A stretch of DNA of 55,299 nt from Candidatus Gastranaerophilales bacterium (lineage in GTDB: Bacteria > Cyanobacteriota > Vampirovibrionia > Gastranaerophilales > Gastranaerophilaceae): the NCBI GenBank assembly GCA_944326465.1, contig CALVEB010000014.1, positions 1-55,299 of the forward strand, read 5' to 3'. The notes beneath the pieces are model-generated. The model saw only the letters and a list, made by a program, of their open reading frames with translations. It was not told where the DNA came from and made no database searches. Position 1 is the stretch's first letter. Each line of letters begins with the position of its first letter. Made by a program: the position numbers and the translations under genes. Below are positions 1 to 34,009 of the stretch, in pieces.

Positions 1-191
1 CGAACAGTTTCTGTAAGTTTCTTTTCCCACAAATCCTTAGCCGTAGACCATGCTTTTTCATTGTGGTTCTGGATAAGGCCAGGTAATGTGAGCGCGGCCA
101 CGATGCCGATGACGGTCAACGTGATGAGCACCTCGGCGAGGGTAAATGCTCTTAAATTCTTACTTTGTGACCTATTAAATACAATGCACAT
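1..191 (-). CDS. Prepilin-like protein, N-terminal part (cut by window edge)
   Basis: Reading the minus strand from the ATG at 191 gives a 14-residue leader, then a type IV prepilin/pseudopilin signature (RAFTLAEVLITLTVIGIVAA), then LIQNHNEKAW. The FTLAE stretch is the prepilin-peptidase cleavage and methylation site; the hydrophobic helix anchors the protein in the inner membrane until assembly. The frame is open to the window edge, so the C-terminal domain is not seen. Near-identical residues after the helix (ending KKLTETVR) recur in the interrupted prepilin at 11710-12987, so the two are paralogues. It is transcribed divergently from the XRE regulator at 260. Confidence 0.85.
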   Translation of the reverse strand, partial: MCIVFNRSQSKNLRAFTLAEVLITLTVIGIVAALTLPGLIQNHNEKAWSTAKDLWEKKLTETV

Positions 192-214
192 AATATTTCT
201 CCTTATATTTGTCG

Positions 215-237
215 CTGATAGCGACAGTCGCTGTCAG
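215..237. promoter_or_regulatory. Near-perfect palindromic operator between prepilin and XRE gene
   Basis: CTGATAGCGAC, one central base, then GTCGCTGTCAG: two 11-bp arms with one mismatch. It lies between the prepilin start (191, minus) and the regulator start (260, plus). A 23-bp dyad of this quality between divergent genes, one encoding an HTH protein, is most simply the operator of that protein. The assignment is inference. Confidence 0.6.
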
Positions 238-259
238 TAACATAGCATAAAATATTCTT

Positions 260-517
260 ATGTGCAAGGATTTTCAAAAAGAACTGGGAAAAAATATAAG
301 ACAAATACGTCTAACAAAACACATTACACAGGAAGCATTATCACTGGAATCAAGCATTTCGCGCTCACATATCGCCATGATAGAGGCAGGGAAACGCGAT
401 ATTACTGTTAGTGCATTATTCAAAATTTCCCGTGCTCTCAATGTAACGATGAATGAAATTTTCTCATTTGACGACACAGAAAAATTTCTATTTGATATTG
501 AAAAAATATATGAATAA
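260..517 (+). CDS. Small XRE-family HTH transcriptional regulator
   Basis: An 85-aa protein that is essentially one lambda-repressor-like HTH domain (about residues 8-65; recognition region ITQEALSLESSISRSHIAMI, then EAGKRDITV). There is no sensing domain. No Shine-Dalgarno is visible; a TAAAAT hexamer lies 6 nt upstream of the ATG, so the mRNA may be leaderless. It faces a prepilin gene across the dyad at 215-237, which it probably binds. The last ~59 bp of the gene plus 14 bp of downstream sequence are repeated exactly at 1629-1701, beyond the Abi gene. A second small XRE gene (13193) stands in the same orientation to a second prepilin gene. Confidence 0.85.
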   Translation: MCKDFQKELGKNIRQIRLTKHITQEALSLESSISRSHIAMIEAGKRDITVSALFKISRALNVTMNEIFSFDDTEKFLFDIEKIYE

Positions 518-531
518 AAAACATTTCAAAA
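459..531. repeat. 73-bp direct repeat, copy 1 (3' end of XRE gene)
   Basis: Identical over 73 bp to 1629-1701. It covers the end of the regulator gene, its stop codon and 14 bp beyond. The spacing between copies is exactly 1170 bp, and the Abi_2 gene is the only gene in between. Confidence 0.9.
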
Positions 532-586
532 TGAAGGGAGTCCACACTAACGTAATACTCTTAAAACAAAAATATTAATTTAATCA

Positions 587-1459
587 CTATAAGTAATAAT
601 TCACAGGGAAACCCATTTTAGTTATATCAATATTTGGATATTTTACAAATAAATCTTTCAGCTGCTGTTTAAAGTTATTGAAAGGATGATGTTTCATTAA
701 TAGTGCAATAACAAAACAGGCAGAATAAACACTATCGTTATTTACTTGATTTTCATGCCACTGCGGTATTTTTTGTGGTTCTGCAAATTTGATTTTTAAT
801 TGTCTGTTCCATAATCTTGAATGATGAGCGCAAATATTTCTTATTGTTGCAAGAACATGTATCCAATTAGTTAAAACAGGTGATGTAAAATAGTCAGGAG
901 TTAATAAATTAGCAATTTGTTTTACATCTTTAAAATTTAATCCGCTGAGAATTTTGGATAAATCTCCCATTGACAAAACTTCTGAAATCATCCAGAATGG
1001 CGGTAAGTCAGGCTCAAAATATTTTTCATAATAATACTTTATAAAAGTATCTTTTTTCAAACCTCTTTCATTCTCTAATATTTCCAGTGTTTTTTCATAG
1101 TCCCGTCGACTTTTGTAATTTTTAACATCATAAAACCAATGCGAACCATAATTTGAGCACATATATAAACAGATTTTAGCCCGCAATGCGATTTCTATAA
1201 CACGAATATTTTCAAATATTATTGATTTTAAATCTTTATCAAAGTTATATAAATTTACTATATCTTCAAAAATAGTATTTTTCTTAAATTTATCATCTAT
1301 TTGAAAGTATTTCATGTATGCTGATAATCGATAATACGTAATATTACTAAGAATATTTTTAGCAAAATCTACGTTATTTATAATCAATCCTCTTGATTTT
1401 AATAAGTCAATTTGTTTATCGACATTCAATGACGGTTTGTTAAATTTTATCTTTTCCAC
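587..1459 (-). CDS. Abi_2 family (AbiD/AbiF-like) abortive infection protein
   Basis: A 290-aa protein with the Abi_2 layout: N-terminal helices with ITYYRLSAYMKYF (about 40-52), a middle region around FENIRVIEIALRAKI, and a C-terminal HEPN RNase motif R-x4-H in RNICAH (R207 to H212), followed by SRLWNR. Characterised family members act in phage abortive infection, and the HEPN motif suggests RNA cleavage. The gene sits alone between two 73-bp direct repeats that duplicate the end of the upstream XRE gene, which suggests acquisition by recombination at that site. No companion antitoxin-like gene lies inside the repeat unit; the XRE gene just outside may serve, but that is unproven. Confidence 0.85.
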   Translation of the reverse strand: MEKIKFNKPSLNVDKQIDLLKSRGLIINNVDFAKNILSNITYYRLSAYMKYFQIDDKFKKNTIFEDIVNLYNFDKDLKSIIFENIRVIEIALRAKICLYMCSNYGSHWFYDVKNYKSRRDYEKTLEILENERGLKKDTFIKYYYEKYFEPDLPPFWMISEVLSMGDLSKILSGLNFKDVKQIANLLTPDYFTSPVLTNWIHVLATIRNICAHHSRLWNRQLKIKFAEPQKIPQWHENQVNNDSVYSACFVIALLMKHHPFNNFKQQLKDLFVKYPNIDITKMGFPVNYYL

Positions 1460-1628
1460 ACATACCCTCTCATTAATTACAAAAAAGACCTGCTGATTTG
1501 AGCATTGTTAAGAGGCTTAGCAGGTACTATCAATAATATTATATCATATTATTAAAGGAATTTCAAGATGTTTGTAATATTTCTTATTTTTCCAATAATA
1601 AAATATATTTTTTACCTATATAAATATC

Positions 1629-1701
1629 TTTTCTCATTTGACGACACAGAAAAATTTCTATTTGATATTGAAAAAATATATGAATAAAAAACATTTCAAA
1701 A
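1629..1701. repeat. 73-bp direct repeat, copy 2
   Basis: Exact copy of 459-531, consisting of the last codons, stop and 3' flank of the XRE gene without the rest of the gene. With copy 1 it brackets a 1170-bp unit containing only the Abi_2 gene. It could be an att-like scar or the product of a homology-driven duplication. Confidence 0.9.
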
Positions 1702-4525: not shown

Positions 4526-5062
4526 TTAATCGTCATCTTCATCTTTTTTTTCAGACTTTACTTCCGGTTTTTCGGATGCAGGTTTTTCTGCGGCCGGTTT
4601 TTCAGGAGCCGGTTTAACTTCTTCTTTTTTGTCTGTTTTCGGAGCCGCTGCTTTTTTAGGTTCTTTAGCCGGTTCTTCCTCTTTCAGGTATACAACAGGT
4701 TTTGCATCGTGTTTTTCAAACAATTTGTTCAATCTTTTTGCATTATTCATACCAAAACCTACAACAGAGGCCACGGCACCCACTGCACCAAAAAGGACGA
4801 CTGATAAACCTTTTAACAATACATTAGCTTTTTTTGAGGCAAGACCACCTAATAACATTGCGCCTGCCGTAATTGCACAAGACGCAATTCCGTTGGCTGT
4901 ACGTTTGTTTTCTTCTTTTTTGTAATCAGCAATAAATTCATCTGCTTTGTTTTCAGGTACAGAATAGTGAGCGACTATATCTTTCCCGAAAAATTTATTT
5001 TTTGCATCTACCTGAACTCTGCCGCCGTCAAGTGGTTTTACTACTTCTACTGATAATGCCAT
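4526..5062 (-). CDS. Hypothetical membrane protein with Lys/Pro/Glu-rich tail
   Basis: A 178-aa protein of unknown function. The N-terminus (MALSVEVVKPLDGGRVQV) matches that of the next gene (5087-5482), so the two are tandem paralogues. Two hydrophobic Gly/Ala-rich segments (roughly residues 60-105) suggest membrane insertion, followed by a long low-complexity tail of KPAAEKPASEKP type ending in DEDDD. I choose the ATG at 5062 over one 21 bp upstream because GGAGGT sits 9 nt before it, while the upstream ATG overlaps that ribosome-binding site. Probably co-transcribed with 5087-5482, 24 bp away. Confidence 0.75.
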   Translation of the reverse strand: MALSVEVVKPLDGGRVQVDAKNKFFGKDIVAHYSVPENKADEFIADYKKEENKRTANGIASCAITAGAMLLGGLASKKANVLLKGLSVVLFGAVGAVASVVGFGMNNAKRLNKLFEKHDAKPVVYLKEEEPAKEPKKAAAPKTDKKEEVKPAPEKPAAEKPASEKPEVKSEKKDEDDD

Positions 5063-5086
5063 TTTAAACTGACCTCCATTCACTTT

Positions 5087-5482
5087 TTATTTAATATCCT
5101 CAGGCTTTTGACCTGTTACTTCTTCTACATTGTAATTTTTCATATTTATTTGTTCTAACTTGTTGTTAAAACTCTTATCAGCTTTTTTGCTGCCCAAGAA
5201 TGCTAACAACCCGACGCCGACACCGGATAATACCTTGCCGAGTGTACCGAACTTCAATACCGCCCCGACAAGCAAACCAATACCGGCACTTAAAAAGTAT
5301 GTCATTATATTCTGGAATTTACGGTTAGTGTTAAGAGAATTTCTCTGCGCAATAAATTGATCTGCCTTTTCCTGCGGGGCAACATAATAGCGCTCAACAG
5401 GATGTTTTTCAGTACCTGATTTTTCCTGTATCAGTACCCTGTTGTTTTCTAAATTTCTTACTACACTAACACTTAAAGACAT
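5087..5482 (-). CDS. Hypothetical small membrane protein, paralogue of the next gene
   Basis: A 131-aa protein of unknown function. The N-terminal ~45 residues (MSLSVSVVRNLENNRVLI, then ERYYVAPQEKADQFIAQ) resemble the start of the 4526-5062 product. Two hydrophobic segments follow (about 58-95, including SAGIGLLVGAVLKFG and GVGVGLLAFLG). It lacks the charged tail of its paralogue. The pair look like a duplicated two-helix membrane protein with a small cytoplasmic N-terminal domain. Confidence 0.72.
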   Translation of the reverse strand: MSLSVSVVRNLENNRVLIQEKSGTEKHPVERYYVAPQEKADQFIAQRNSLNTNRKFQNIMTYFLSAGIGLLVGAVLKFGTLGKVLSGVGVGLLAFLGSKKADKSFNNKLEQINMKNYNVEEVTGQKPEDIK

Positions 5483-5571
5483 ACTACACCTTATATTACA
5501 TTTTCATAAAAACCAGTACAACTAAAAATTTGCCAATATACAGCCATTTTAGCCAGAAAACGTAACATAAC

Positions 5572-5832
5572 TTAATTAAGGTATTCGTTAAGCTTTCCGC
5601 TTTTGTGGAGTGCTTCTAAATCAGTGTATCCGCCGACATATTTATCGTTAATAATAATCTGCGGCACTGTTGAAATTGAACGATTAAAGCGTTGTGCTAA
5701 CTCTTCACACATTTTGTCAAACGAATCTGACACATCGTGTTCAGAGTATTCCAGATTTAACATTTTGAGTAATTTTTTTGCCTTAATGCAATAAGGGCAT
5801 GTTTGAGATGTGTAAATTTCAATTTTGTTCAT
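5572..5832 (-). CDS. Glutaredoxin
   Basis: An 86-aa thioredoxin-fold protein with a dithiol active site TCPYC (C12, C15), the cis-proline segment TVPQIIINDK and the GGYTDL glutathione-binding turn. It reduces disulfides or glutathionylated proteins using glutathione or an alternative thiol. AGGATAACTT before the ATG supplies the ribosome-binding site. It starts 3 bp after the stop of the upstream Ycf45-like gene, so the two are probably one transcript. Confidence 0.93.
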   Translation of the reverse strand: MNKIEIYTSQTCPYCIKAKKLLKMLNLEYSEHDVSDSFDKMCEELAQRFNRSISTVPQIIINDKYVGGYTDLEALHKSGKLNEYLN

Positions 5833-5835
5833 AAG

Positions 5836-7464
5836 TTATCCTGTCTTTTGCTGATTAAAATCTTTACCGCCAACGATTTTTAAGTGCCGTTGCGCACCTT
5901 CACCAACTGATTTTGAGATTAAGTTGTGCTGCTCGACTAATTCATGCTGCAACTTTCTAATCTGCTGGTTTTGAGGCCGGAGTTCAATATGATCGGCACC
6001 TGCAAGTATTTTGTTAATTGCAGCTTTAGCTTCATCGAGTGCACGTTCTGCCTCATCATAATACCCCTGTAAGGTCTCTACTTCTGTTATATCAAGCGCT
6101 TCTTTTAAAACTTTCTGTATTTGCGCCATAGAATTTGTTTTAATGTAGAAAATTCGCAGTCTGTAATCGTTTGCAGTACTGAGGATTTTTGCACCGCCTT
6201 TTGCAAAGTTTTTGTGCGCGATTACGATATCTGCTTCATCAATATTTCTTGTAATCTCGACATTCAAATCCAGACGCTCAATGATTTTTTCTACAATACT
6301 CCTTGAGACAGCATAAAGATACACTTTTTTAAAGTTTTTAACTTCATCAACGTATTTCTGGCGTGAGAACGAAAATTTTAAACTGTCATCGGGTTTAATT
6401 TTTTCTTCAAGCCTGTGAATTTCTTCAGTTATAGTCGGGTGATTTTTTTCTTCTTGTTTAGGCGGTTCTGCCGGTTTATCATCGTAAGTTTTATCAACTT
6501 TTCTAATTTCGGGTCTTATCGGCCAGCCGCGCAAAATATAATCAACAGCTTCTGCTGTATCTTTATACACAGCGAGAGTATTTCTGTCTAAGATTTCTAT
6601 AACAATATCAAATGTCGGCTGTTTTTCACGTTCAAGAACTGTTTTTTGCGATGCGCGGCGTTTTGCCTCGTCATCACCCAGGGTTACTGATTGAACACCC
6701 CCGACCAAATCAGAAAGTGTCGGGTTTTTAATCAGGTTTTCAAGACTGTTACCGTGCGCGGTAGCGATTAACATAACACCGCGTTCAGCTATTGTTCTTG
6801 CGGCCTGCGCTTCGGCTTCTGTACCTATTTCGTCAACCACAATAACTTCCGGCGTATGGTTCTCAACAGCCTCAATCATAATATCTTTCTGGAATTCCGG
6901 TTGTCTTACCTGCATACGTCTGGCATGGCCTATTGCAGGATGCGGCGTATCCCCGTCGCCTGCTATTTCGTTTGATGTATCAACGACGACAACACGCTTG
7001 CCGAGTTCATCAGCAACCAGACGGGATATTTCTCTTAACTTGGTTGTTTTACCAACCCCCGGCCGCCCGAGAAAGAGAATACTTTTACCCATCATACAAA
7101 TATCTTTTATACAAGCAATTGTCCCCGTAACAACTCTACCGATTCTGCACGTGAGGCCGATAATTTTCCCTTGCCTGTTACGTATTGCACTGATTCTGTG
7201 GAGTGTTCCGGGGATCCCTGAACGATTATCAGATGTAAATTCCTGAACATGACTTGTTATGAATGAAATATCCTCATCAGTAACAGTATCATTGCCGAGG
7301 TATTCTATTTTACCTCCCGAGTGTCTTATCTCAGGCGTTCGCCCGATATCCAGTACAATTTCTATAACATCCTCCAGTTTCTCATAACTCAAGTACTTTT
7401 TTACCCGCTCCGGCAAGATGTTCACAAGTTTGTCGATATCGTTCTGAAATTCAAGATTGCTCAT
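5836..7464 (-). CDS. Ycf45/SpoIIIAA-like AAA ATPase with C-terminal R3H domain
   Basis: A 542-aa protein. Residues about 60-300 form a RecA/AAA-type ATPase with Walker A GRPGVGKTT (133-141), a DTSNEIAGDGD stretch, and Walker B VIVVDEIG (207-214), very close to the R3H-type Ycf45 proteins of cyanobacteria and plastids and to SpoIIIAA. A charged linker (about 325-365) leads to a C-terminal region ending in an R3H-like segment (RPQNQQIRKLQHELVEQHN then GEGAQRHLKIVG), expected to bind single-stranded nucleic acid. The biological role in cyanobacteria is not settled. This gene is one of the better taxonomic hints in the window. Confidence 0.85.
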   Translation of the reverse strand: MSNLEFQNDIDKLVNILPERVKKYLSYEKLEDVIEIVLDIGRTPEIRHSGGKIEYLGNDTVTDEDISFITSHVQEFTSDNRSGIPGTLHRISAIRNRQGKIIGLTCRIGRVVTGTIACIKDICMMGKSILFLGRPGVGKTTKLREISRLVADELGKRVVVVDTSNEIAGDGDTPHPAIGHARRMQVRQPEFQKDIMIEAVENHTPEVIVVDEIGTEAEAQAARTIAERGVMLIATAHGNSLENLIKNPTLSDLVGGVQSVTLGDDEAKRRASQKTVLEREKQPTFDIVIEILDRNTLAVYKDTAEAVDYILRGWPIRPEIRKVDKTYDDKPAEPPKQEEKNHPTITEEIHRLEEKIKPDDSLKFSFSRQKYVDEVKNFKKVYLYAVSRSIVEKIIERLDLNVEITRNIDEADIVIAHKNFAKGGAKILSTANDYRLRIFYIKTNSMAQIQKVLKEALDITEVETLQGYYDEAERALDEAKAAINKILAGADHIELRPQNQQIRKLQHELVEQHNLISKSVGEGAQRHLKIVGGKDFNQQKTG

Positions 7465-7736
7465 GCTTTTTCATCGCCTTTCTTATTTTGATATTCAATT
7501 GTTTATATTCAAAATATGATTATTGGCTGAATTATTTTCTCTCTACTATTATTATACCACTTTTTAAAAAATTTTCATCATTCTAAAGAACTACATCTGT
7601 AGCAAATTTACAAAATTTAACAGACTCCGCAAACAGTTACCGGTAAGAAAAAATTTATATGGTCTATACAAAAACAAATACATAACAGCTATTCGTTTAC
7701 TTCGCAACAAAACATACTATAAAATCCGATTTGTGA

Positions 7737-7742
7737 TATAAT
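7737..7742 (+). promoter_or_regulatory. -10 box placing the 7749 gene on a leaderless mRNA
   Basis: Perfect TATAAT six nt before the ATG at 7749, with no Shine-Dalgarno between. The -35 region is poor. Transcription would begin at or next to the start codon. Confidence 0.5.
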
Positions 7743-7748
7743 TTAAGT

Positions 7749-8657
7749 ATGAAAAAAATATTAATCACAAGTTTACTGCTATTAGCAGGCATAATGCCGG
7801 TAATTGCAGATGATATTACCGAAGATTTTCTGGATATTGCAGCAGATTATTGTATTCAGGGCAACTATTCAGAAGCAATTAATTATGTGGACAAAGCTAT
7901 TGCACACGAACCTGACAATCCCAATTTAATTGCAATAAAAGAAGGAATTTATCGCATCCAGAATCCTAATGCAAAATCATATCTGGCACTCAATAATCCC
8001 GAGGTCAAAGAAGCAGAAGCTTACAAAAAATCAGGAAACAAAACAAAAGAAATAGAAGCGCTTACAACAGGTTACAACGCAAAAAATCCATGGGCGACAT
8101 ATTATCTGGCAGAATATTACCGCGCAAGCAAGCAATATAACACAGCCCTGAATTATTATGACAAAACCCTTGAATTAAAAGCCGGCTTTGCGCAGTGCTA
8201 TCTTGGTATTACATTAACCTTAATGGAAATGCACAACTATGAAGCTGCTCTAAACGCTGTCAGATATTATCTTGACCGCTGCCCTAAATCAGATTTAGGG
8301 TATGCATTACGCGCGGAAATGAATATGCATCTGAAAAATTATGTTGATGCCGAAGCTGATATAATCACCGCACTGTCAATTTCTGATGACATTGAATATA
8401 AACTTCTTGAAGCAGAAATTCTTTACTATCGCGGAAGCTATAAGTCCGCTAAAGAAAAACTTACAGCACTTTCAAGCAGTATAAAAACAGCAGAATTGTA
8501 CAAATATCTGGGACTTTGCGATTATGCACTAAAAGATTACAACAACGCATTACTAAATTTAAATAATTCAATCATCCTCTCTGATGACGACATTGAAGTC
8601 AAAAAAAAGTATAATGAAGTTAAAACTAAATTAACAAACGGAAATACAAATGGCTAG
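7749..8657 (+). CDS. Secreted tetratricopeptide-repeat protein
   Basis: A 302-aa protein with a cleavable signal peptide (MKKILITSLLLLAGIMPVIA then DD) and several TPR helices: EAINYVDKAIAHEPDNPNL, YNTALNYYDKTLELKAGFA, YEAALNAVRYYLDRCPKSD, and a C-terminal pair. TPRs are protein-interaction scaffolds; in this position it is probably periplasmic. It opens a plus-strand group (7749-11143) and overlaps the next gene by 8 bp. The partner is unknown. No ribosome-binding site is seen, see the -10 box at 7737. Confidence 0.8.
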   Translation: MKKILITSLLLLAGIMPVIADDITEDFLDIAADYCIQGNYSEAINYVDKAIAHEPDNPNLIAIKEGIYRIQNPNAKSYLALNNPEVKEAEAYKKSGNKTKEIEALTTGYNAKNPWATYYLAEYYRASKQYNTALNYYDKTLELKAGFAQCYLGITLTLMEMHNYEAALNAVRYYLDRCPKSDLGYALRAEMNMHLKNYVDAEADIITALSISDDIEYKLLEAEILYYRGSYKSAKEKLTALSSSIKTAELYKYLGLCDYALKDYNNALLNLNNSIILSDDDIEVKKKYNEVKTKLTNGNTNG

Positions 8658-9627
8658 AAGAGAACGACACAAAAAAGAGAGTACCGCAACAAGAATAAAA
8701 AACTGGGGCATATCCATAATTCTTGCGATTATAATGTTTTGCGGGCTGCAAAGTTACAGTGCTTCCAGCCTGAAATTTGTTCAGGTAAGTGACGTACATT
8801 TTTCAACGCGCCAGACAAATACAACCTACAAATTGACAGGTGAATCCCCTGAACTTCTTGATGACGCCGTAGAACAGATTAATGCAATTCCAAATGTAAA
8901 TTTTGTAATGTTTACAGGTGATCAGATAGATAAATCTTTTGAAAAAGAATTGTCAGCATTTTTGCCGCATGCGCAAAAACTGGTTTACCCGTGGTATGTT
9001 GCTTTCGGCAACCACGATACCTGTATTGGCGGATATTTAACCCCGAGTGTATATTTAAGTCTGGTCAGCAAATATAATAAGAATTTTAATTTCACAACCC
9101 CGTATTATTCCTTTGTCCCGCAAAAAGGGTACAAAGTCATTGTACTGGATACAATTATACGTGACAGAATTACAGCTAACGGTGAAATTAGTCCGGAACA
9201 GCTTCAATGGCTGGATAATCAGATAAGCAGTTCTCCGAAAGATACTATTCTCATATTTATGCATGTCCCGATAATAGAGCCTTACAGCAGTCCGGGGCAC
9301 AAACTTTTAAATGCAGAGGAAGTTGAAGCGGTTTTGAAAAAATATAAAAATCCTATCGGAGTGTTTCAGGGGCACTATCACGGAGCAAAAATTACGCAAA
9401 AAGACAATATTTTATATGTAAGTTCAGCAGCACTGGTAAGCTATCCAAATGTATTCAGGGTTGTAAATGTCACTAATTACAGAAGAAGAGTTGTTTTTGA
9501 TATAAAAACAAATGAAACCAGACTGCAAAATTTACAAAAACTTGCCAAAATTATGGTATTCGGAACCACAATTTATTCAGGTGAACCACAAGATCAAAAC
9601 GGTATTTATATAATTAAGAAAAAATAA
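8650..9627 (+). CDS. Membrane-anchored calcineurin-type metallophosphoesterase
   Basis: A 325-aa protein with a basic N-terminus and one membrane or signal segment (about 16-36), then a calcineurin-like phosphoesterase domain. The five metal-binding motifs are present in order: SDVHFS, TGDQID, GNHDT, MHVPI and GHYHGA. The active site should face the periplasm and hydrolyse phosphomono- or diesters; the substrate cannot be told from sequence. It overlaps the TPR gene upstream by 8 bp (coupled translation) and lies 14 bp from the MBL-fold gene downstream. Confidence 0.85.
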   Translation: MARRERHKKESTATRIKNWGISIILAIIMFCGLQSYSASSLKFVQVSDVHFSTRQTNTTYKLTGESPELLDDAVEQINAIPNVNFVMFTGDQIDKSFEKELSAFLPHAQKLVYPWYVAFGNHDTCIGGYLTPSVYLSLVSKYNKNFNFTTPYYSFVPQKGYKVIVLDTIIRDRITANGEISPEQLQWLDNQISSSPKDTILIFMHVPIIEPYSSPGHKLLNAEEVEAVLKKYKNPIGVFQGHYHGAKITQKDNILYVSSAALVSYPNVFRVVNVTNYRRRVVFDIKTNETRLQNLQKLAKIMVFGTTIYSGEPQDQNGIYIIKKK

Positions 9628-9641
9628 CAGAGGTTAAAAGT

Positions 9642-10568
9642 ATGAGCGATTTCAAGATTAAATTCAGAGGTGTCAGAGGAAGTTATCCTATAGCAAACGG
9701 GAATTACCTGCAATACGGCGGCAATACATCCTGTGTGGAAGTAAACGTAAACGGACATTTGATTATACTGGATGCCGGAACAGGGCTTATTGATATTGGC
9801 AACGAACTAATGGAAAAATATATCGCGTCAGGGCTGACGACGGAAGAACGTACTCCTATTCAGGCAACTGTTTTAATCTCGCATATACATCAAGATCATA
9901 TTCAGGGCTTTACTTTTTTCAGACCTTTGCATATTCCGACCAGCAGAATTAATGTATTTGGCAACGTAAGTTATGAAGAAACTTTATCTGATGAACTTGC
10001 GCACCTGTTGTTCGGTAAATCATTCCCGCTGGATCTGGGCGACATTGCAGGCAACTTGAATATTCATGATATAACCGATACTGACGGCATAATCCTTCGT
10101 CACGGATGTGAACCTATTATCAAAAGAATTGAAAAAGATGAAGATAAAATTCCTCAGGATGACGATGTTTTAATCACCTGTTACCGTTCATACGCGCATC
10201 CGCAGGAAGGAGTTATAATTTACAAAATAGCTTATAAAGACAAAACTCTTGTATATGCAACAGACAAAGAAAGTTATCTTGGCGGAGATAAAAAGCTTGC
10301 AAACTTTGCACGCGGCTGTGATCTTATAATCCACGATGCGCAATATACAACAGAAGATTACCTGAACAGTTTTGTTCCGAAACAGGGTTACGGCCACTCT
10401 ACATTTGACATGGCAATTGAATGTCAAAAACAGGTTGGAGCAAAAAAACTGGTATTTTTCCATTTTGACCCGACTTATGATGACAACAAGTTAAATATCA
10501 TTAAAGAGCATTATAAAGAGCTTGAAAATGTACAGCTTGCTTATGAAGGTCTTGAAATAGAATTATAA
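9642..10568 (+). CDS. MBL-fold metallohydrolase
   Basis: A 308-aa metallo-beta-lactamase-fold protein without signal peptide. The N-terminal pattern GVRGSYP..NYLQYGGNTSCVEV followed by ILDAGTG and the metal motif SHIHQDHIQGF (HxHxDH) place it in the group related to class II cyclic-nucleotide phosphodiesterases and similar cytoplasmic hydrolases. Later metal ligands are consistent (HDAQYT, YGHST, FFHFDPTYDD). It may hydrolyse a cyclic nucleotide or other phosphodiester, but the substrate is not deducible. AGAGG precedes the ATG. Co-directional with and close to its neighbours. Confidence 0.85.
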   Translation: MSDFKIKFRGVRGSYPIANGNYLQYGGNTSCVEVNVNGHLIILDAGTGLIDIGNELMEKYIASGLTTEERTPIQATVLISHIHQDHIQGFTFFRPLHIPTSRINVFGNVSYEETLSDELAHLLFGKSFPLDLGDIAGNLNIHDITDTDGIILRHGCEPIIKRIEKDEDKIPQDDDVLITCYRSYAHPQEGVIIYKIAYKDKTLVYATDKESYLGGDKKLANFARGCDLIIHDAQYTTEDYLNSFVPKQGYGHSTFDMAIECQKQVGAKKLVFFHFDPTYDDNKLNIIKEHYKELENVQLAYEGLEIEL

Positions 10569-10573
10569 CAAAA

Positions 10574-11143
10574 ATGAAAAAGATTTTAATTTCAGCATTA
10601 ATATTGACGTGTATGGTAACATGCGGCTACCGGAAACCTTATGTATACGAAATAGATGCCTCCAGAAACGGGGCACTGCATAACGACTGGGGTTTAAGGT
10701 ATCTGAATGAAAAATGCTACTATGCTGCAATACAAGAGTTTAAAATTGCGATTAGTCTTAATCCCGACACACAGGCAACCTCAACATATTACAACAATTT
10801 AGGCGAAACTTATATGCTAATCGGGTATCCTGACTGGGCGCAGGATTGTTTTGAGCGTGCCATTACACAATACAGTCTTAATTTCAAATACTATCAAAAT
10901 CTGGCCAAATGTTTTAAGGCCCGTGGTCTTGTTGATATGAAGATTAAAGAATACAGTCAGGAGGGCTCTCCGCTGAACAAGATTATGCTGGGGCTTTTGT
11001 ATGTGGAAAAAGGCGACGCCCGCCGCGGGATTATTATACTGGATGAATTTGCAATGTCAGAACCCGACTTGATAATCACAGTTGCGGTTAAGGCCTATAT
11101 AAAAGAAATGGTTGCACAGATAAACAGCACACAAAATTTATAG
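10574..11143 (+). CDS. Exported TPR-repeat protein, possibly a lipoprotein
   Basis: A 189-aa protein with an N-terminal signal (MKKILISALILTCMVTCG). The cysteine near the end of the hydrophobic stretch could be lipidated, but the lipobox is imperfect. TPR-type helices follow (CYYAAIQEFKIAISLNPDTQ, then YPDWAQDCFERAITQYSLN). It begins 5 bp after the MBL-fold gene and ends the group started at 7749, so this operon encodes two exported TPR proteins around two hydrolases. The function is unknown. Confidence 0.75.
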   Translation: MKKILISALILTCMVTCGYRKPYVYEIDASRNGALHNDWGLRYLNEKCYYAAIQEFKIAISLNPDTQATSTYYNNLGETYMLIGYPDWAQDCFERAITQYSLNFKYYQNLAKCFKARGLVDMKIKEYSQEGSPLNKIMLGLLYVEKGDARRGIIILDEFAMSEPDLIITVAVKAYIKEMVAQINSTQNL

Positions 11144-11454: not shown

Positions 11455-11688
11455 CAAAGAAGCTCTCGACCTTCACCTACGTCGCACAGAGTCTCTAAAT
11501 TCAACCAGAGCGCGCAAACTCGCTACGCTCAGACAATGCGCGCTTTGCCGATGTTTCATTAAGAGCCTCTGGCGCCTCCGGCTAACGGTCGAAGAAAGTT
11601 GTATGTCGCTTGACGCACTGATAAAAAACAGACAACGCTTAAATTTTGCATTGCCTGATTTTATTAACGAACCTATTCCCTTATTCAC

Positions 11689-11718
11689 TTCTAACTAAGG
11701 GCATAGCCTTTAGTTAGA
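11689..11718 (-). terminator. Terminator overlapping the end of the prepilin gene
   Basis: TTCTAACTAAGG and CCTTTAGTTAGAA arms with a 6-nt loop. The right arm includes the stop codon and last codons of the gene ending at 11710, so the hairpin overlaps coding sequence. Confidence 0.6.
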
Positions 11719-12987
11719 AACACATATAGCGCGGAGGTAGCTGTAGTCCTTGTTGTAGTAGCTCCAGCCGCTGTCCGTAGGGTTGAAACCCCGAAGGTAC
11801 GCGCGATTCGCATAGCGCTCCTCACTGGACCAGTAGGTGTAGCCAGTGTATTTGATTGGAGGGTTCTCTTGGTATGCTTCCTTTACTTTGAGGTTAGATT
11901 TGTTTTCTGTTGCTCCTATTGTCACTGCGCTTCCATCGCTTGAGTTTACATATAATTCACTCGCTAATTGTGCTAATTGTGCTCTCGTTGGAAGTTCCAT
12001 GCCTTTATCTTTACATGCTTTTATTGCTCCTGCCCAGTAATTGGTTGAACAATATGAATTCGCTGTACCCTGTTTATCATAAGTTGTATCATTACATGTA
12101 TCTATTGCTATATTCGCAGCAAAATCTGTAGACCAGCACATGTCTCCTATCGGGTTATCACAATTGGAAAGAGATATTTGACCTTTCAATGCTATATCAT
12201 CACCTACTTTATTAGGCCCTTTCTTGCCGTTAACATCCACCATAAATCCTAAGCAGCTTACCTGACTTCCTGTATCTTCTATAGGGTCTGCATAAGCGCA
12301 ATTAGGGTTGTATGCCATAATAACAGTTGTGCCATCCGCTATAACAAATGACATGGTATTAGTTCCCCATTCGGAATTACCTAAGTTCTCTGCTGTTTTT
12401 AAATCAGATGTTTGAACTTCAATAGGTTCAGAATCACTTCCTGTTTGTACTATCTTTGGTGAATAGCACTTATTAATGTCATTGTTATCACAAGTCTTAA
12501 TAACTTTCATGTAGTTTTTGAAAGTATTCATGAAATCTTCTGTAGATTCATGTCCTGTCATGACGCCATCTACGTTCATACGGCGGACTGTTTCTGTGAG
12601 TTTCTTTTCCCAGAGGTCTTGTGCTGTAGACCATGCTTTTTCATTGTGGTTCTGGATAAGACTCGGAAGTGTTAGCGCTGCAACTATTCCTATAACCGCG
12701 AGGGTGATTAATATCTCTGCGAGAGTGAAAGCGATGCGCTTGCCCTCTCCGAGGGGGAGGGCTGAATTTCTTAGTGAGCTTGCGAACTTAGAAATTCGGG
12801 TGGGGGTTGGTTCGTTGGATCAGCACAATAGGCTGGCACCGTATTTCTTTAGCGACCACCAAGAGTGTAAGAGTGGACTTGTCCACCCCCCACCTAGAAT
12901 TTGTAAGCTCACTGTGTTCGCTAACAAATTCTTTTCCTCCCCCTTGGAGAGGAGTTGTACATTGTTTTGTGTTGATTTTACCATCAT
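11710..12987 (-). pseudogene. Prepilin-like gene interrupted in its leader by a MITE-like element
   Basis: The start region is ATG ATG at 12987/12984 behind GGAGAA, giving MMVKSTQNN. The prepilin signature RIAFTLAEILITLAVIGIVA lies at about 12738-12680 in the same frame, but the intervening 12742-12958 is a repeat element with an in-frame TGA at 12822-12820. Downstream, the frame is open to 11710. The mature part has LIQNHNEKAW as in the gene at 1-191, and a C-terminal domain with ELPTRAQLAQLASELYVNS and YWSSEE..RGF, like DUF1566/FGE-type lectin folds of other long pseudopilins. The ATG at 12579 would lose the signal segment. No ATG, GTG or TTG lies in frame between the TGA and FTLAE. It is therefore off or a pseudogene, unless a rare start is used. 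Confidence 0.7.
12742..12958. repeat. MITE-like element inside the prepilin leader
   Basis: About 217 bp bounded by imperfect ~70-bp inverted repeats. Each arm carries CCTCTCC..GGGGGAGG and a GAATTT..AAATTC-type secondary hairpin. The core has ACAAGTCCACTCTTACACTC and CTAAAGAAATACGG. A truncated copy lies at 55052-55191. It encodes no transposase, so it would depend on one in trans. Open frames inside it are by-products of the repeat. Confidence 0.75.
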
Positions 12988-13020
12988 TTATTCTCCTTGC
13001 TTTGTTTGTGTTTTTTAATT

Positions 13021-13092
13021 TCAAATGCACTTAACGACATAACGTCTTATAGTCTTAACGTCTTTCACCGGATATACATTTTTCTTTTTCAT
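13021..13092 (-). CDS. Possible 23-aa small ORF
   Basis: ATG at 13092 lies behind an excellent AAAGGAG site (6 nt spacing) and encodes a basic 23-residue peptide (MKKKNVYPVKDVKTIRRYVV, then three more). The coding part overlaps a GACGTTAAGAC-type repeat also seen near 23280, so it may be fortuitous. It would be the first gene of the transcript that continues into the interrupted prepilin gene. Confidence 0.3.
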   Translation of the reverse strand: MKKKNVYPVKDVKTIRRYVVKCI

Positions 13093-13179
13093 GCCAGCTC
13101 CTTTCTACATGTCAAATATTTTATTCATATATTTATATATATCATTATAAGTCAATACATTTATATGTCAATATGTATT

Positions 13180-13185
13180 TATAAT
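13180..13185 (+). promoter_or_regulatory. -10 box for the XRE gene, leaderless arrangement
   Basis: TATAAT seven nt before the ATG at 13193, with no Shine-Dalgarno. Upstream, TGTCA or AGTCA motifs recur (about 13109, 13150, 13166 and 13189), which may be operator half-sites for the encoded HTH protein. Confidence 0.5.
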
Positions 13186-13192
13186 TTATGTC

Positions 13193-13414
13193 ATGCTAGA
13201 TAAAAAAGAAATATATAAAATAATTGGGAAAAACATACAAAACGCGCGTAAAGCCAAAGGATTGACGCAGGAAGAATTCGCAGAACTTATGGACAAATCA
13301 TGGAGTTATATTGCTAAACTCGAAATTGGCATGCAAAATTTTTCCATTGGCAAGCTGATTGATATAGCAAACTATTTGAATATTGAACTTGAAGAACTTT
13401 TGAAGCTCAGTTAA
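13193..13414 (+). CDS. Small XRE-family HTH transcriptional regulator
   Basis: A 73-aa protein that is only a Cro/CI-type HTH domain (IGKNIQNARKAKGLTQEEFA, then SWSYIAKLEIGMQNFS). It is transcribed away from the prepilin gene ending at 11710, in the same divergent arrangement as the XRE/prepilin pair at 1-517. Recurrence of that arrangement suggests these mini-regulators control the adjacent pilin genes. TATAAT at 13180 implies a leaderless mRNA. The gene ends about 40 bp before a bidirectional terminator shared with ppdK. Confidence 0.85.
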   Translation: MLDKKEIYKIIGKNIQNARKAKGLTQEEFAELMDKSWSYIAKLEIGMQNFSIGKLIDIANYLNIELEELLKLS

Positions 13415-13450
13415 CAAATAAAAGAGAAATAACTTTTAGATTTAAGCAAC

Positions 13451-30341: not shown

Positions 30342-31448
30342 TTAATCAAATAATTTTTTGCATTTCTCCTGAATTTCCAATGCAATATCTTTTGCCAATT
30401 TTTCACTTAGTCCTATATTTTTTGCAACAGTTAAAATATCATCTAAAGATGGATTTTTCCCTTCGCCATTTATTGTTGTTGCATGTTCCCCGTTAAATGA
30501 AGAACTATAAGTTAAATCGTATGCGGGAGATAAATACCATTCCTTTTTATTATCGTCATAAAGATAAGAAAAATTCTTTGAATGATCATCGCGATTGTGA
30601 GCAAATACGTTAAAACACATTAACCTGAATAATTGTTCAATGTCTTCATAGTTTCTTGTAAGTTCAAGCGTAAGTTTCATTAATAAATTATAATCAAGAT
30701 TAGGAAGCCTGTGACTTGTTTCCAATAACCCGCTTACTGATACCATATGCACTTTTTTATTATTTTCCCTATCAAATCTTTTTATGCCAAAATAACCCGA
30801 ACAAATTTCTGATGGAAAAAGCTTTGTTTTTGTCATATTAATTCCGCAGTCTTTTGCACATAGTGAATATTGATATTCTTTTTCACCAATATTTTTAGGA
30901 TCAGTTGATGACGGAAATTTAATTATCCAATCTTCATTATTTATTGAAGTTAAAATCTTTGGTCTTGCACCGCCTGACGAACCTCCTAATTGAAAAAGTT
31001 CATCTAAATTATCTGAATTCTGTGATTCTAAAATTTTTGAGCATTCCTGTGCGAGAATATCAAAGTCAGAAACGTTATTTTCTGTTTCAAATTTATGTTC
31101 GGGTTTATATGTTAAAGCGCCCATACCAGTTTCCTGAACAACCGCAAGCCGATTGAGATTGTCAATTTCAGCGGGATTTATTTTGTTTTTCAAAAATAAC
31201 CTATTAACAAGTAATCTCCCCCAACCATCAGGCAAACTATCATTAAAAACACCAAACAACCCATCAAAAGGTTCGTATTTTGGGATAAAAACCTTCTTAA
31301 TTAATGGTAAACTAAAAGGAGATATGCTAAACCCGTTATTTAACCAGTCGGAATCGTATTCGAATGCGACCACTCTTTCGGGCGTTTTAGCAAGAGTACC
31401 AACTAAAATATCATTATAAAAGACTTTTAAATATTTATAGTTGTCCAT
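30342..31448 (-). CDS. hipA: HipA-like serine/threonine kinase toxin
   Basis: A 368-aa protein with the HipA N1 domain (VGTLAKTPERVVAFEYDSDW, ISPFSLPL) and kinase core: the GGSSGGARPK loop at 155-164 (autophosphorylation/P-loop region), IIKFP, catalytic HNRDDHSKNF (Asp287), and the metal-binding AYDLTYS near 311-317. HipA toxins phosphorylate aminoacyl-tRNA synthetases or related targets and induce growth arrest. It is somewhat shorter than the E. coli protein (about 440 aa). The start overlaps the end of hipB by 14 bp, the usual antitoxin-first order. Confidence 0.92.
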   Translation of the reverse strand: MDNYKYLKVFYNDILVGTLAKTPERVVAFEYDSDWLNNGFSISPFSLPLIKKVFIPKYEPFDGLFGVFNDSLPDGWGRLLVNRLFLKNKINPAEIDNLNRLAVVQETGMGALTYKPEHKFETENNVSDFDILAQECSKILESQNSDNLDELFQLGGSSGGARPKILTSINNEDWIIKFPSSTDPKNIGEKEYQYSLCAKDCGINMTKTKLFPSEICSGYFGIKRFDRENNKKVHMVSVSGLLETSHRLPNLDYNLLMKLTLELTRNYEDIEQLFRLMCFNVFAHNRDDHSKNFSYLYDDNKKEWYLSPAYDLTYSSSFNGEHATTINGEGKNPSLDDILTVAKNIGLSEKLAKDIALEIQEKCKKLFD

Positions 31449-31719
31449 TTATAACCTCATCAATAGAATTGTATGTTTTTTGCGTAAACAAGTTTTCAAA
31501 ATCTTTTTCTAAATTAAGAACAATCAGAATTTTTATCAATGAAGTCAGTGAAATTTCATATTTAGATTCAAACCTTTTGATAGAACCCAGACTAACACCT
31601 GATTTTGCAGCAAGTTGAACTTGTGAAATTTTAAGCATTCTTCTCTGTTGCTTAATTTTCTCAACAAATTCATTTGCAATATCATTGGGAGTTCTTGGGT
31701 TAAAAATAAACTCATTCAT
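31435..31719 (-). CDS. hipB: HipB-like HTH antitoxin
   Basis: A 94-aa protein with an XRE HTH (VEKIKQQRRMLKISQVQLAA, KSGVSLGSIKRFESK). It is expected to neutralise the HipA kinase and repress its own operon. I prefer the ATG at 31719 over the upstream one at 31755 because the latter lies inside the promoter. No Shine-Dalgarno is seen and the -10 box is 9 nt upstream, so the mRNA has almost no leader. Confidence 0.88.
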   Translation of the reverse strand: MNEFIFNPRTPNDIANEFVEKIKQQRRMLKISQVQLAAKSGVSLGSIKRFESKYEISLTSLIKILIVLNLEKDFENLFTQKTYNSIDEVINGQL

Positions 31720-31728
31720 AGATAATAT

Positions 31729-31775
31729 ATTATACCATTTTTGCCAAAAAGTCAATATATAGACAATATATTATC
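31729..31775 (-). promoter_or_regulatory. hipBA promoter and probable HipB operator
   Basis: Minus strand: TTGACT (31750-31755), 15 nt, TATAAT (31729-31734). Overlapping it, GTC-N8-GAC and two ATAATATATT-like repeats form AT-rich dyads suited to HipB binding. Confidence 0.6.
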
Positions 31776-31795
31776 CCAAATGTTATTTAAAATGT

Positions 31796-31830
31796 AAAAA
31801 TACAACATTAGAATGATATGTTGTATTTTT
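31796..31830. terminator. Hairpin between hipBA and the recombinase gene
   Basis: AAAAATACAACAT and ATGTTGTATTTTT form a 13-bp stem with A/T tails. No plus-strand gene ends here, so it may block transcription running out of the hipBA promoter region or into the island. Confidence 0.6.
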
Positions 31831-31956
31831 TGAGATTGTGGGTAAATGGAAGAGGGGTAAATAGAGTGGGTGCTTGTGTTCTATTTTGTTGCGAGGCATT
31901 ATTTTTGCTGTCTTTTAGGGCATTAATGTTGTGGCTCAAAACCTTGAAGACAACTT

Positions 31957-32496
31957 ATGAACATCGTCGAACCGATAAAAAGCATAGAAGATATACAAAA
32001 TATTAAAAGAGTTTTATCAAAGAAACCACGCAATGCTCTGCTTTTCAGCTTTGGAATAAACAGCGGACTAAGAATTGCCGATATCCTCTCACTCGACGTC
32101 AAAGACGTAAAAGGAAAAGACTATATAGAGCTTCGAGAAAAGAAAACCAATAAATATAAGAAATTTCCAATTAACGAAAACTTGAAAGTTGAAATTGAAG
32201 AATTCGTAAAAGACAAACCCGACGAAAGACCTTTATTTTATACACAAAAAGGATATAGATTGGATAGAGCTCAAGCCTACCGAATAATAAACAAAGCCGC
32301 CCGAATGGTAGGAATTAAAGGCAGAATCGGAACACATACCCTAAGAAAAACCTTCGGCTACCACTTCTACCAACAATACGACGATATAGTAATGCTACAA
32401 AAGATTTTTAACCACTCTTCCCCCTCCATCACCCTCCAATACATCGGCATCGAACAAGAAGACATCGATGAAGTTTATAGGAATTTTTATTTATAA
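31957..32496 (+). CDS. Tyrosine recombinase, catalytic domain only
   Basis: A 179-aa XerC/D-type recombinase that contains the catalytic domain but no core-binding domain. Active-site residues can be followed: Arg in NSGLRIADILSL, Lys in EKKTNKYKKF, HTLRKTFGYH (HxxR), His in FNHSSPSITL and the nucleophile Tyr in LQYIGI. It may be a truncated integrase, or a type that needs another DNA-binding subunit. It sits at the left of the island, where an integrase is expected. No strong Shine-Dalgarno. Confidence 0.85.
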   Translation: MNIVEPIKSIEDIQNIKRVLSKKPRNALLFSFGINSGLRIADILSLDVKDVKGKDYIELREKKTNKYKKFPINENLKVEIEEFVKDKPDERPLFYTQKGYRLDRAQAYRIINKAARMVGIKGRIGTHTLRKTFGYHFYQQYDDIVMLQKIFNHSSPSITLQYIGIEQEDIDEVYRNFYL

Positions 32497-32596
32497 TGGT
32501 TATTAATACCCATGTTTGCTGAGATTGAACCACATTTCTTATTTTGATTGTTTGTGTTAGTATCTATTATAGGAGAATTATAATCAATAGGTCCAT

Positions 32597-34009
32597 ATGG
32601 AAAATATAGGCAGATGTCAAATTTTTACACCTGAAGAAAAAGTTGCTACATTGCTTAATGCAATTGGCTATAAGCATGATTTATACGGGAAACCGTTTCT
32701 CGAAAATTCTTGTGGAGAAGGAGCCGTATTAAGCATGGCCGTGGAAAGATACATACGGGACTGCTTAGAACAAAAATTACCATTAGAGTCTATAAAAAGT
32801 GGTCTAGAAAAAGATATTTGGGGATTTGAAATTGATAAGGACCGATACCAAAAGTGTATTGATAATTTAAATATTTTGGTAAGTAAATACAATATTTCAA
32901 ATGTTAAATGGAAAATATTAAAAACTGATTTTTTAAAGTATGCTTTTAACAATAAATTTCAATTTATTGCGGGAAATCCACCCTATCTTAACTATAGGGA
33001 TTTATCTATAGAAGTAAGAAATTATGTGAAAAATAATTTTACAACCTGCAAAAAAGGTAAATTTGATTATTGTTATGCATTTATAGAAAAGAGTATTAAT
33101 TGTTTAGAGGACAACGGAAAACTAGCTTATTTAATACCTACAAGCATATTTAAAAATGTTTATGCTGAAAATCTGAGAACATATATGCTTCCACATATAT
33201 CAAAAATTATAGATTTCAAAACAGAAAAAGTCTTTGAAAAGGCATTAGTAGCAACATCTATTTTAATTTGCGAAAAGAATATAAAAGAAAAATCTATAGA
33301 ATATACAAATAAAGATACTAGATTAAAAAGAAAAATAAAAAAAAGTGATTTGCACGGGAAATGGATATTTTCAAAAGTTCCAATAGAAAATAAAGATAAA
33401 AATTTTATCCGATTTGGAGACTTATTCCATGCTTCTATTTCCATTGCAACATTATTAAACAAAGCTTTTATTGTAGATGAAAACCCACAAACTAGTAAAA
33501 TTGAAAAACAAATATTGAAACCAGCTAAGAGTCCAAGAAACTTAGCTTATTCAAAAAATGAAAATATTATATTTCCATATTTTTATAATAAAAATAAACT
33601 TGAAAAATACTCGGAGGAAGATTTTAATAAAAATTATCCTAATGCTGCAACACACTTAAGCAAATATAAAGATGATTTAGATAGGAGAAATAGTGATACT
33701 TCCGCAAAATGGTTTGAATATGGGAGAAGCCAAGCTTTGGCACATTTGAATCAGAAAAAACTATTAATGTCCACGGTTGTGACTGATAGCATAAAAGTAT
33801 ATGAATTAAAAAAAGAGGATATTCCATATGCTGGAATATATATTATTTCAAAAAATGGGACTCCCTTGGGCAAGGCACAAGAAATATTGCAAAGCAAAAA
33901 TTTTTTAGAATACGTGAATAATATTGGAATTCAAGCAAGTGGAACTTCATTAAGAATTACAGCGAAAGATGTAAATAATTATGAATTTTGCATGGAGGAA
34001 ATGTTATGA
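32597..34009 (+). CDS. N6-adenine DNA methyltransferase (type II/TaqI-like)
   Basis: A 470-aa class I methyltransferase. The first conserved block IFTPEEKVATLLNAIG then LENSCGEGAVLSMAVE supplies the SAM-binding motif I. The catalytic motif IV is NPPY (AGNPPYLNYRDL), the adenine-specific form. The C-terminal half (about 260-470) resembles a target-recognition domain (FRFGDLF..., GRSQALAHLNQKKLL). It would modify a specific DNA sequence as the protective arm of a restriction system. The stop codon overlaps the next start in an ATGA arrangement, so all four genes to 37472 are translationally coupled. Confidence 0.88.
   Translation: MENIGRCQIFTPEEKVATLLNAIGYKHDLYGKPFLENSCGEGAVLSMAVERYIRDCLEQKLPLESIKSGLEKDIWGFEIDKDRYQKCIDNLNILVSKYNISNVKWKILKTDFLKYAFNNKFQFIAGNPPYLNYRDLSIEVRNYVKNNFTTCKKGKFDYCYAFIEKSINCLEDNGKLAYLIPTSIFKNVYAENLRTYMLPHISKIIDFKTEKVFEKALVATSILICEKNIKEKSIEYTNKDTRLKRKIKKSDLHGKWIFSKVPIENKDKNFIRFGDLFHASISIATLLNKAFIVDENPQTSKIEKQILKPAKSPRNLAYSKNENIIFPYFYNKNKLEKYSEEDFNKNYPNAATHLSKYKDDLDRRNSDTSAKWFEYGRSQALAHLNQKKLLMSTVVTDSIKVYELKKEDIPYAGIYIISKNGTPLGKAQEILQSKNFLEYVNNIGIQASGTSLRITAKDVNNYEFCMEEML

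What the first reader, a model, noticed from the sequence alone, without database searches (positions are those of the whole stretch)
459..1701. Abi_2 gene bracketed by 73-bp perfect repeats of the neighbouring regulator's 3' end
The 1170-bp unit contains only the Abi_2 gene. Duplicating the end of the target gene preserves the regulator, as integrating elements do at tRNA or gene ends, but no integrase is present. The repeats could also let the gene be lost or amplified by recombination.
Basis: seen in the sequence. Interest (0 to 1): 0.6.

Follow-up and report, generated by a model that had tools for sequence, protein, structure and literature searches.

The report
AbiF toxin-antitoxin cassette between gene-end repeats
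A small bacterial self-poison-and-antidote gene pair (an AbiF toxin and the RNA that neutralises it) recently landed behind a regulator gene in a gut bacterium, and its arrival copied the last 73 bases of that gene to the far side; the pair is of a known kind, and the repeats look like a trace of insertion that also makes the pair easy to lose.

Summary
But the 1170-bp unit does not contain only Abi_2. An abiF RNA (Rfam RF03085, 55.3 bits) with its own promoter precedes the gene, so the unit is an AbiF toxin with its RNA antitoxin. The host is a Candidatus Gastranaerophilales species. A congener (G003) has the empty site: one copy of the repeat, regulator end joined to the fabF side. A second congener (G002) keeps an orphan abiF RNA in the same interval, without toxin and without a second repeat. 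The two repeats are identical to each other but differ from G003 at 7 of 73 positions, so the duplication (or its last gene conversion) is younger than the species split. No integrase, transposon ends or further copies of the repeat exist, and four close AbiF relatives have no such repeats. Best reading: a horizontally exchanged, non-autonomous toxin-antitoxin cassette with an insertion-associated duplication; a remnant of an integrase element remains possible. In passing: many phages, including Acinetobacter phage Acj61, carry solitary abiF RNAs without AbiF, possible antitoxin decoys.

The parts
260..517 (+). HTH_3 (Cro/C1-type) regulator gene whose 3' end is duplicated; convergent with abiF
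   Evidence: PF01381 E 7.6e-15; orthologues next to a pilin-like gene in G002, G031, G015, G012
459..531 (+). repeat copy R1: last 59 bp of the regulator including the stop, plus 14 bp
   Evidence: 100% identical to 1629-1701
532..1628 (.). inserted segment, 1097 bp, 26% GC; absent from the empty site in G003
587..1459 (-). AbiF (Abi_2/AbiD-F family) toxin, 290 aa, GTG start, R207-x4-H212 (RNICAH) HEPN-type motif invariant in 9 homologues
   Evidence: PF07751, PADLOC AbiD E 2.2e-72, motif, PDB 8vz6 'Abi family protein' E 3.7e-41
1488..1524 (-). abiF RNA (RF03085), the presumed RNA antitoxin; its stem followed by U6 may also act as terminator
   Evidence: cmscan 55.3 bits, gathering 37
1538..1566 (-). 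promoter of abiF RNA and abiF, TTGAAA-17-TATAAT with TG before the second hexamer, conserved in G002, G197, G177
   Evidence: best promoter-like site of the region, 11 of 12; alignment
1602..1628 (.). unmatched stretch between the conserved cassette (602-1603) and R2; the stretch 532-586 on the other side is unmatched too
1629..1701 (+). repeat copy R2: orphan 3' end of the regulator, contiguous with the original downstream DNA and fabF
   Evidence: 91% identical to G003 through the junction into fabF

Best explanation
Shown: a compact AbiF toxin plus abiF-RNA cassette was inserted behind an HTH regulator, and 73 bp of the regulator's end now flank it as perfect direct repeats. Inferred from the family: the RNA, made from its own promoter, binds and neutralises AbiF, and read-through gives toxin; loss or disturbance of the RNA frees the HEPN-type toxin and halts the cell, which gives phage defence and makes the cassette hard to lose. 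Inferred for the insertion: a non-site-specific recombination event (one-sided homologous or template-switch joining of donor DNA with overlapping ends) placed the cassette and duplicated the 73 bp. The repeats have no mobility function of their own, but they allow RecA- or slippage-mediated deletion that would restore the G003-type site. Any event that keeps the regulator whole must copy at least to its stop codon, so the repeat ending just beyond the stop is not by itself a sign of an integrase.
For: Perfect repeat and intact regulator. AbiF and abiF RNA identified. Empty site in G003. R1=R2, while R differs from G003 by 6 mismatches and 1 gap and from G002 by about 15; the chance of no difference in 73 bp at 90% identity is 4.6e-4. 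Sporadic distribution, 18 of 288 family genomes, with 85-86% relatives in other genera, points to horizontal exchange. No integrase at the regulator in G002, G003, G031, G015, G012. R occurs only twice in this genome and as one close copy each in G003 and G002; other family hits are short and partial. No long direct repeats around the 71-86% AbiF relatives: nothing of 16 bp or more brackets the gene there.
Against: The anatomy (gene 3' end duplicated, gene kept whole) is what integrase elements leave, and in G133 a 71% relative sits directly beside an integrase. G002 has an abiF RNA in the same regulator-fabF interval, which suggests the cassette may have been at this locus before the duplication arose. 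The joining mechanism leaves no diagnostic sequence. Toxicity and RNA neutralisation were not tested here.
Confidence: 0.5

Rival explanations
1. The 73-bp repeats are attL and attR of an integrase element (or a mini-element moved in trans) that inserted at the regulator's 3' end; only the terminal AbiF cargo is left, or only it was ever mobile.
For: Gene-end duplication with intact gene; seven tyrosine-recombinase hits in this genome, one at 32005-32445 of the window; in G133 a 71% relative is terminal cargo directly beside a 466-aa integrase, with the 3' part of another integrase on the other side.
Against: No integrase at this site in five relatives with the regulator; repeat not reused elsewhere; no long inverted core in R (best 6 nt); the 85-86% relatives have no repeats; the element would have lost everything except 1.1 kb.
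Confidence: 0.25
2. The cassette was already at this locus in the ancestor (orphan RNA in G002 being its relic), and R2 was added later by partial recombination with an empty (regulator-fabF) allele of the same species.
For: G002 carries promoter and RNA at 92% identity in the same interval, about the divergence of the neighbouring fab genes (90%), without R2; R2 and its right flank match G003's empty allele.
Against: The fab region groups G000 with empty G003 and puts G002 outside, so a loss in G003 is also needed; an independent arrival in G002 is equally possible.
Confidence: 0.17
3. An assembly chimera of two strains, one with and one without abiF.
For: The genome is in 52 contigs and the window starts 458 bp from R1, at a contig end inside a pilin-like gene that shares an exact 35-bp stretch with another locus; no reads could be checked.
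Against: The repeat is internal; 73 is not a usual assembler word length (general knowledge); the right flank continues normally into fabF.
Confidence: 0.08

Closest known systems
AbiF-RCd22 of Clostridioides difficile phi027/phiC2 (PMC12373285)
   Same: Abi_2 protein with conserved Arg and His needed for toxicity there (R-x4-H here); upstream RNA with RF03085 motif, own sigma-70-type promoter, terminator, and co-directional toxin gene
   Different: One abiF motif instead of two; chromosomal, not in a prophage lysis module; the phiC2 copy is only 32.6% identical to this protein; activity untested
abiF RNA, Rfam RF03085
   Same: Full-length 37-position match, 55.3 bits
   Different: none seen
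PDB 8vz6, 'Abi family protein'
   Same: Sequence match over 284 residues, E 3.7e-41
   Different: Structures not compared here
Integrase elements in gene 3' ends (ICEs, prophages, satellites)
   Same: Direct repeat of the target gene end; target gene kept whole
   Different: No integrase, no recurrent site, 1.1 kb only
Small variable segments flanked by direct repeats (PMC2884548, about 10% of such segments)
   Same: Short segment between direct repeats, deletable by recombination
   Different: Here a relative with a single repeat copy is available for comparison, and the cargo is a toxin-antitoxin pair

Membership tests
AbiF/Abi_2 with abiF RNA (type III-like toxin-antitoxin) | Abi_2 domain over most of the protein | tested here: met
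   PF07751 profile 1-184 of 184
AbiF/Abi_2 with abiF RNA (type III-like toxin-antitoxin) | R-x4-H HEPN-type catalytic motif | tested here: met
   RNICAH, R207 and H212 invariant in 9 homologues
AbiF/Abi_2 with abiF RNA (type III-like toxin-antitoxin) | abiF RNA upstream of the toxin, same strand | tested here: met
   RF03085 at 1524-1488(-), above gathering
AbiF/Abi_2 with abiF RNA (type III-like toxin-antitoxin) | Protein toxic, RNA binds and neutralises it | not testable with these tools
   Shown for the C. difficile member only (PMC12373285)
Classical type III toxin-antitoxin (ToxIN-like) | Antitoxin RNA made of tandem repeats cut by the toxin | tested here: not met
   A single abiF motif and no tandem repeat units in the RNA region; cleavage not testable
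Integrase-mediated element | Direct repeats of target gene end, gene restored | tested here: met
Integrase-mediated element | Own integrase | tested here: not met
   No other gene in 532-1628
Integrase-mediated element | Site used by other elements in relatives | tested here: not met
   Integrase positions in G002, G003, G031, G015, G012 do not fall at the regulator; R not reused in the family
Integrase-mediated element | Excised circle | not testable with these tools
   No reads
Transposon or MITE | Terminal inverted repeats and short target duplication | tested here: not met
   No inverted pair joins the two ends of 532-1628; duplication of 73 bp is long

The most novel reading that the evidence does not exclude
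The 1.17-kb unit is a minimal mobile toxin-antitoxin cassette without integrase that moves as attL-AbiF/RNA-attR through gene-end repeats, served by a recombinase in trans, with toxin addiction selecting against its loss.
Probability: 0.1. Interest if true: 0.6.

Novelty: new member of a known kind. Interest (0 to 1): 0.38.

Why it matters
It extends experimentally described AbiF toxin and abiF RNA systems to Gastranaerophilales (Melainabacteria-like gut bacteria), gives one locus in three related species in three states (full cassette with repeats, empty, orphan antitoxin RNA), and shows how a defence cassette can sit in a deletable configuration. Following the RNA also turned up solitary abiF RNAs in phages, which would make RNA-based counter-defence against AbiF directly testable.

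Tried and rejected
Transposon with terminal inverted repeats: none found. tRNA attachment site: no tRNA nearby. Repeat as a recurrent attachment site: not found in 288 genomes beyond the regulator itself nor in viral contigs. Exact abiF RNA of this window in viral contigs: none, and no close AbiF relative there. AbiF relic next to the orphan RNA in G002: none by tblastn. Functional link between that orphan RNA and the neighbouring ADP-ribosyltransferase: rejected, since G001 and G004 carry the enzyme (74-77% identical) but show no abiF RNA. Acquisition from a G002-like donor by flanking homology: both flanks of the insert in G000 are closer to G003 than to G002.

Full report
OBSERVATION. The two 73-bp copies are at 459-531 and 1629-1701, identical, 1170 bp apart. 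The first is the end of an 85-aa HTH_3 protein gene, 260-517. The second is an orphan copy continuous with the DNA leading to fabF. In 835 kb of the same genome (44 kb of it masked) it is the only exact direct repeat of 60 bp or more, spaced over 300 bp, with sharp ends on both sides.

WHAT THE UNIT CONTAINS. The gene at 587-1459(-) is an Abi_2 protein (E 9.5e-51; AbiD in PADLOC; PDB 8vz6 by sequence) with an R-x4-H motif invariant among nine homologues. Promoter, RNA and gene are conserved as a block, about 602-1603, with 83-84% DNA identity in two other genera. In C. difficile the corresponding RNA neutralises AbiF by direct binding, and the conserved Arg and His are needed for toxicity (PMC12373285). 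The unit is therefore read as a toxin-antitoxin cassette; activity here is inferred.

WHERE IT IS FOUND. Relatives in public records are Candidatus Gastranaerophilales. AbiF-like proteins occur in 18 of 288 family genomes, abiF RNA above cut-off in 8.

THE LOCUS IN RELATIVES. Of the congeners, two carry a close orthologue of the regulator next to fabF. G003 has the empty site: one repeat copy, regulator end running straight into the fabF side at 91% identity; its regulator is truncated at the 5' end and the pilin-like gene is gone. G002 has regulator, three other genes (DUF6613/pilin-like, HTH, ADP-ribosyltransferase), then an orphan abiF RNA with promoter, then fabF; no AbiF and no second repeat. 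The interval is thus variable. Trees of the adjacent fab genes and of 4670-7620 join G000 with G003; 7740-11130 joins G000 with G002, so the region is mosaic.

AGE. R1 and R2 do not differ; R differs from G003 by 6 mismatches and 1 gap. At 90% identity, no difference in 73 bp has probability 4.6e-4. The duplication, or its last gene conversion, is younger than the split from G003.

HOW IT GOT THERE. Against an integrase element: no integrase inside, none at the regulator in five relatives, repeat not reused, no repeats around the 71-86% relatives. For it: the anatomy, and G133, where a 71% relative lies between an integrase and the 3' part of another. Transformation-type joining with one homologous end is known in other bacteria (homology-facilitated illegitimate recombination; de Vries and Wackernagel 2002 and related work, cited in PMC2884548 and PMC3784515, the originals not read here). 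I prefer such a non-site-specific event, with modest confidence. Partial allele exchange between carriers and non-carriers, suggested by G002, is a close variant. The preservation of the regulator does not by itself favour an integrase, because events that break the regulator may not survive.

CONSEQUENCE. Recombination between R1 and R2 would remove toxin and antitoxin together and give the G003 organisation. Toxin-antitoxin addiction would work against this. Neither was measured.

SIDE FINDING. The abiF RNA core occurs in 39 IMG/VR contigs; 26 of 29 that were scanned exceed Rfam's cut-off (this corrects the count of 18 of 19 in the notebook, which should read 17 of 19). No AbiF was found in any of the 39 loci with a profile that detects 30%-identity AbiFs; for about a third of them the locus is the whole contig, for the rest only the stretch fetched around the match. 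Among GenBank phages, Acinetobacter phage Acj61 (58.0 bits) and Roseobacter phage CRP-143 (50.8 bits) carry it in gaps between genes, near a tRNA cluster and just before the capsid gene respectively, and neither organism appears among the phage records with an AbiF match. This suggests phage-borne antitoxin decoys; function is untested and prior description could not be excluded, since the original abiF RNA paper was not held.

Noticed in passing
L198-L236 (IMG/VR); L243 4001-4037 (phage Acj61); L244 3995-4032 (phage CRP-143): Solitary abiF RNAs in phage genomes without any AbiF gene found, often beside tRNA or permuted tmRNA genes or structural genes; candidate antitoxin decoys against AbiF.
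   Followed up: partly
L045 9162-9198 (-): Orphan abiF RNA with intact promoter in congener G002, at the same regulator-fabF interval, toxin absent.
   Followed up: yes
L060 1501-1537 (+), gene 1568-2341: In G097 an abiF RNA sits directly upstream of a uracil-DNA-glycosylase superfamily gene, in the place where abiF would be.
   Followed up: partly
L062 1502, L065 1502 (L239 7850, L240 651): abiF-like RNA below the Rfam cut-off (32.4 bits) directly before phage-type genes in G269 and G235.
   Followed up: partly
L168 15744-17143: In the same genome a hicAB toxin-antitoxin pair lies between a full and a truncated copy of a HigA-like gene (93% identical, spacing 1169) beside metG; G003 has metG, a short RelE/HigB-like gene and the HigA-like gene there instead.
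   Followed up: partly
window 11670-12740: Part of a family with dozens of copies in this genome and in G002 (about 70-79% DNA identity); the pilin-like gene at the contig start (3-191) shares a 35-bp exact match near it.
   Followed up: no
window 30342-36291: HipBA-like pair, 179-aa tyrosine recombinase, DNA methyltransferase-like gene and a histidine-kinase-like ATPase in a row; looks like a defence or mobile island (functions judged by eye).
   Followed up: no
G000:C6 about 12230-13450 (L161): CRISPR-like array with repeat ATTATAACATATTTTAATTTAAAAGTAAATCAAAAC, about 65 bp period.
   Followed up: no
window 3-517; L047, L048, L049: The HTH regulator is paired divergently with a pilin-like gene in several genera, but the pair sits in different chromosomal neighbourhoods.
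   Followed up: no
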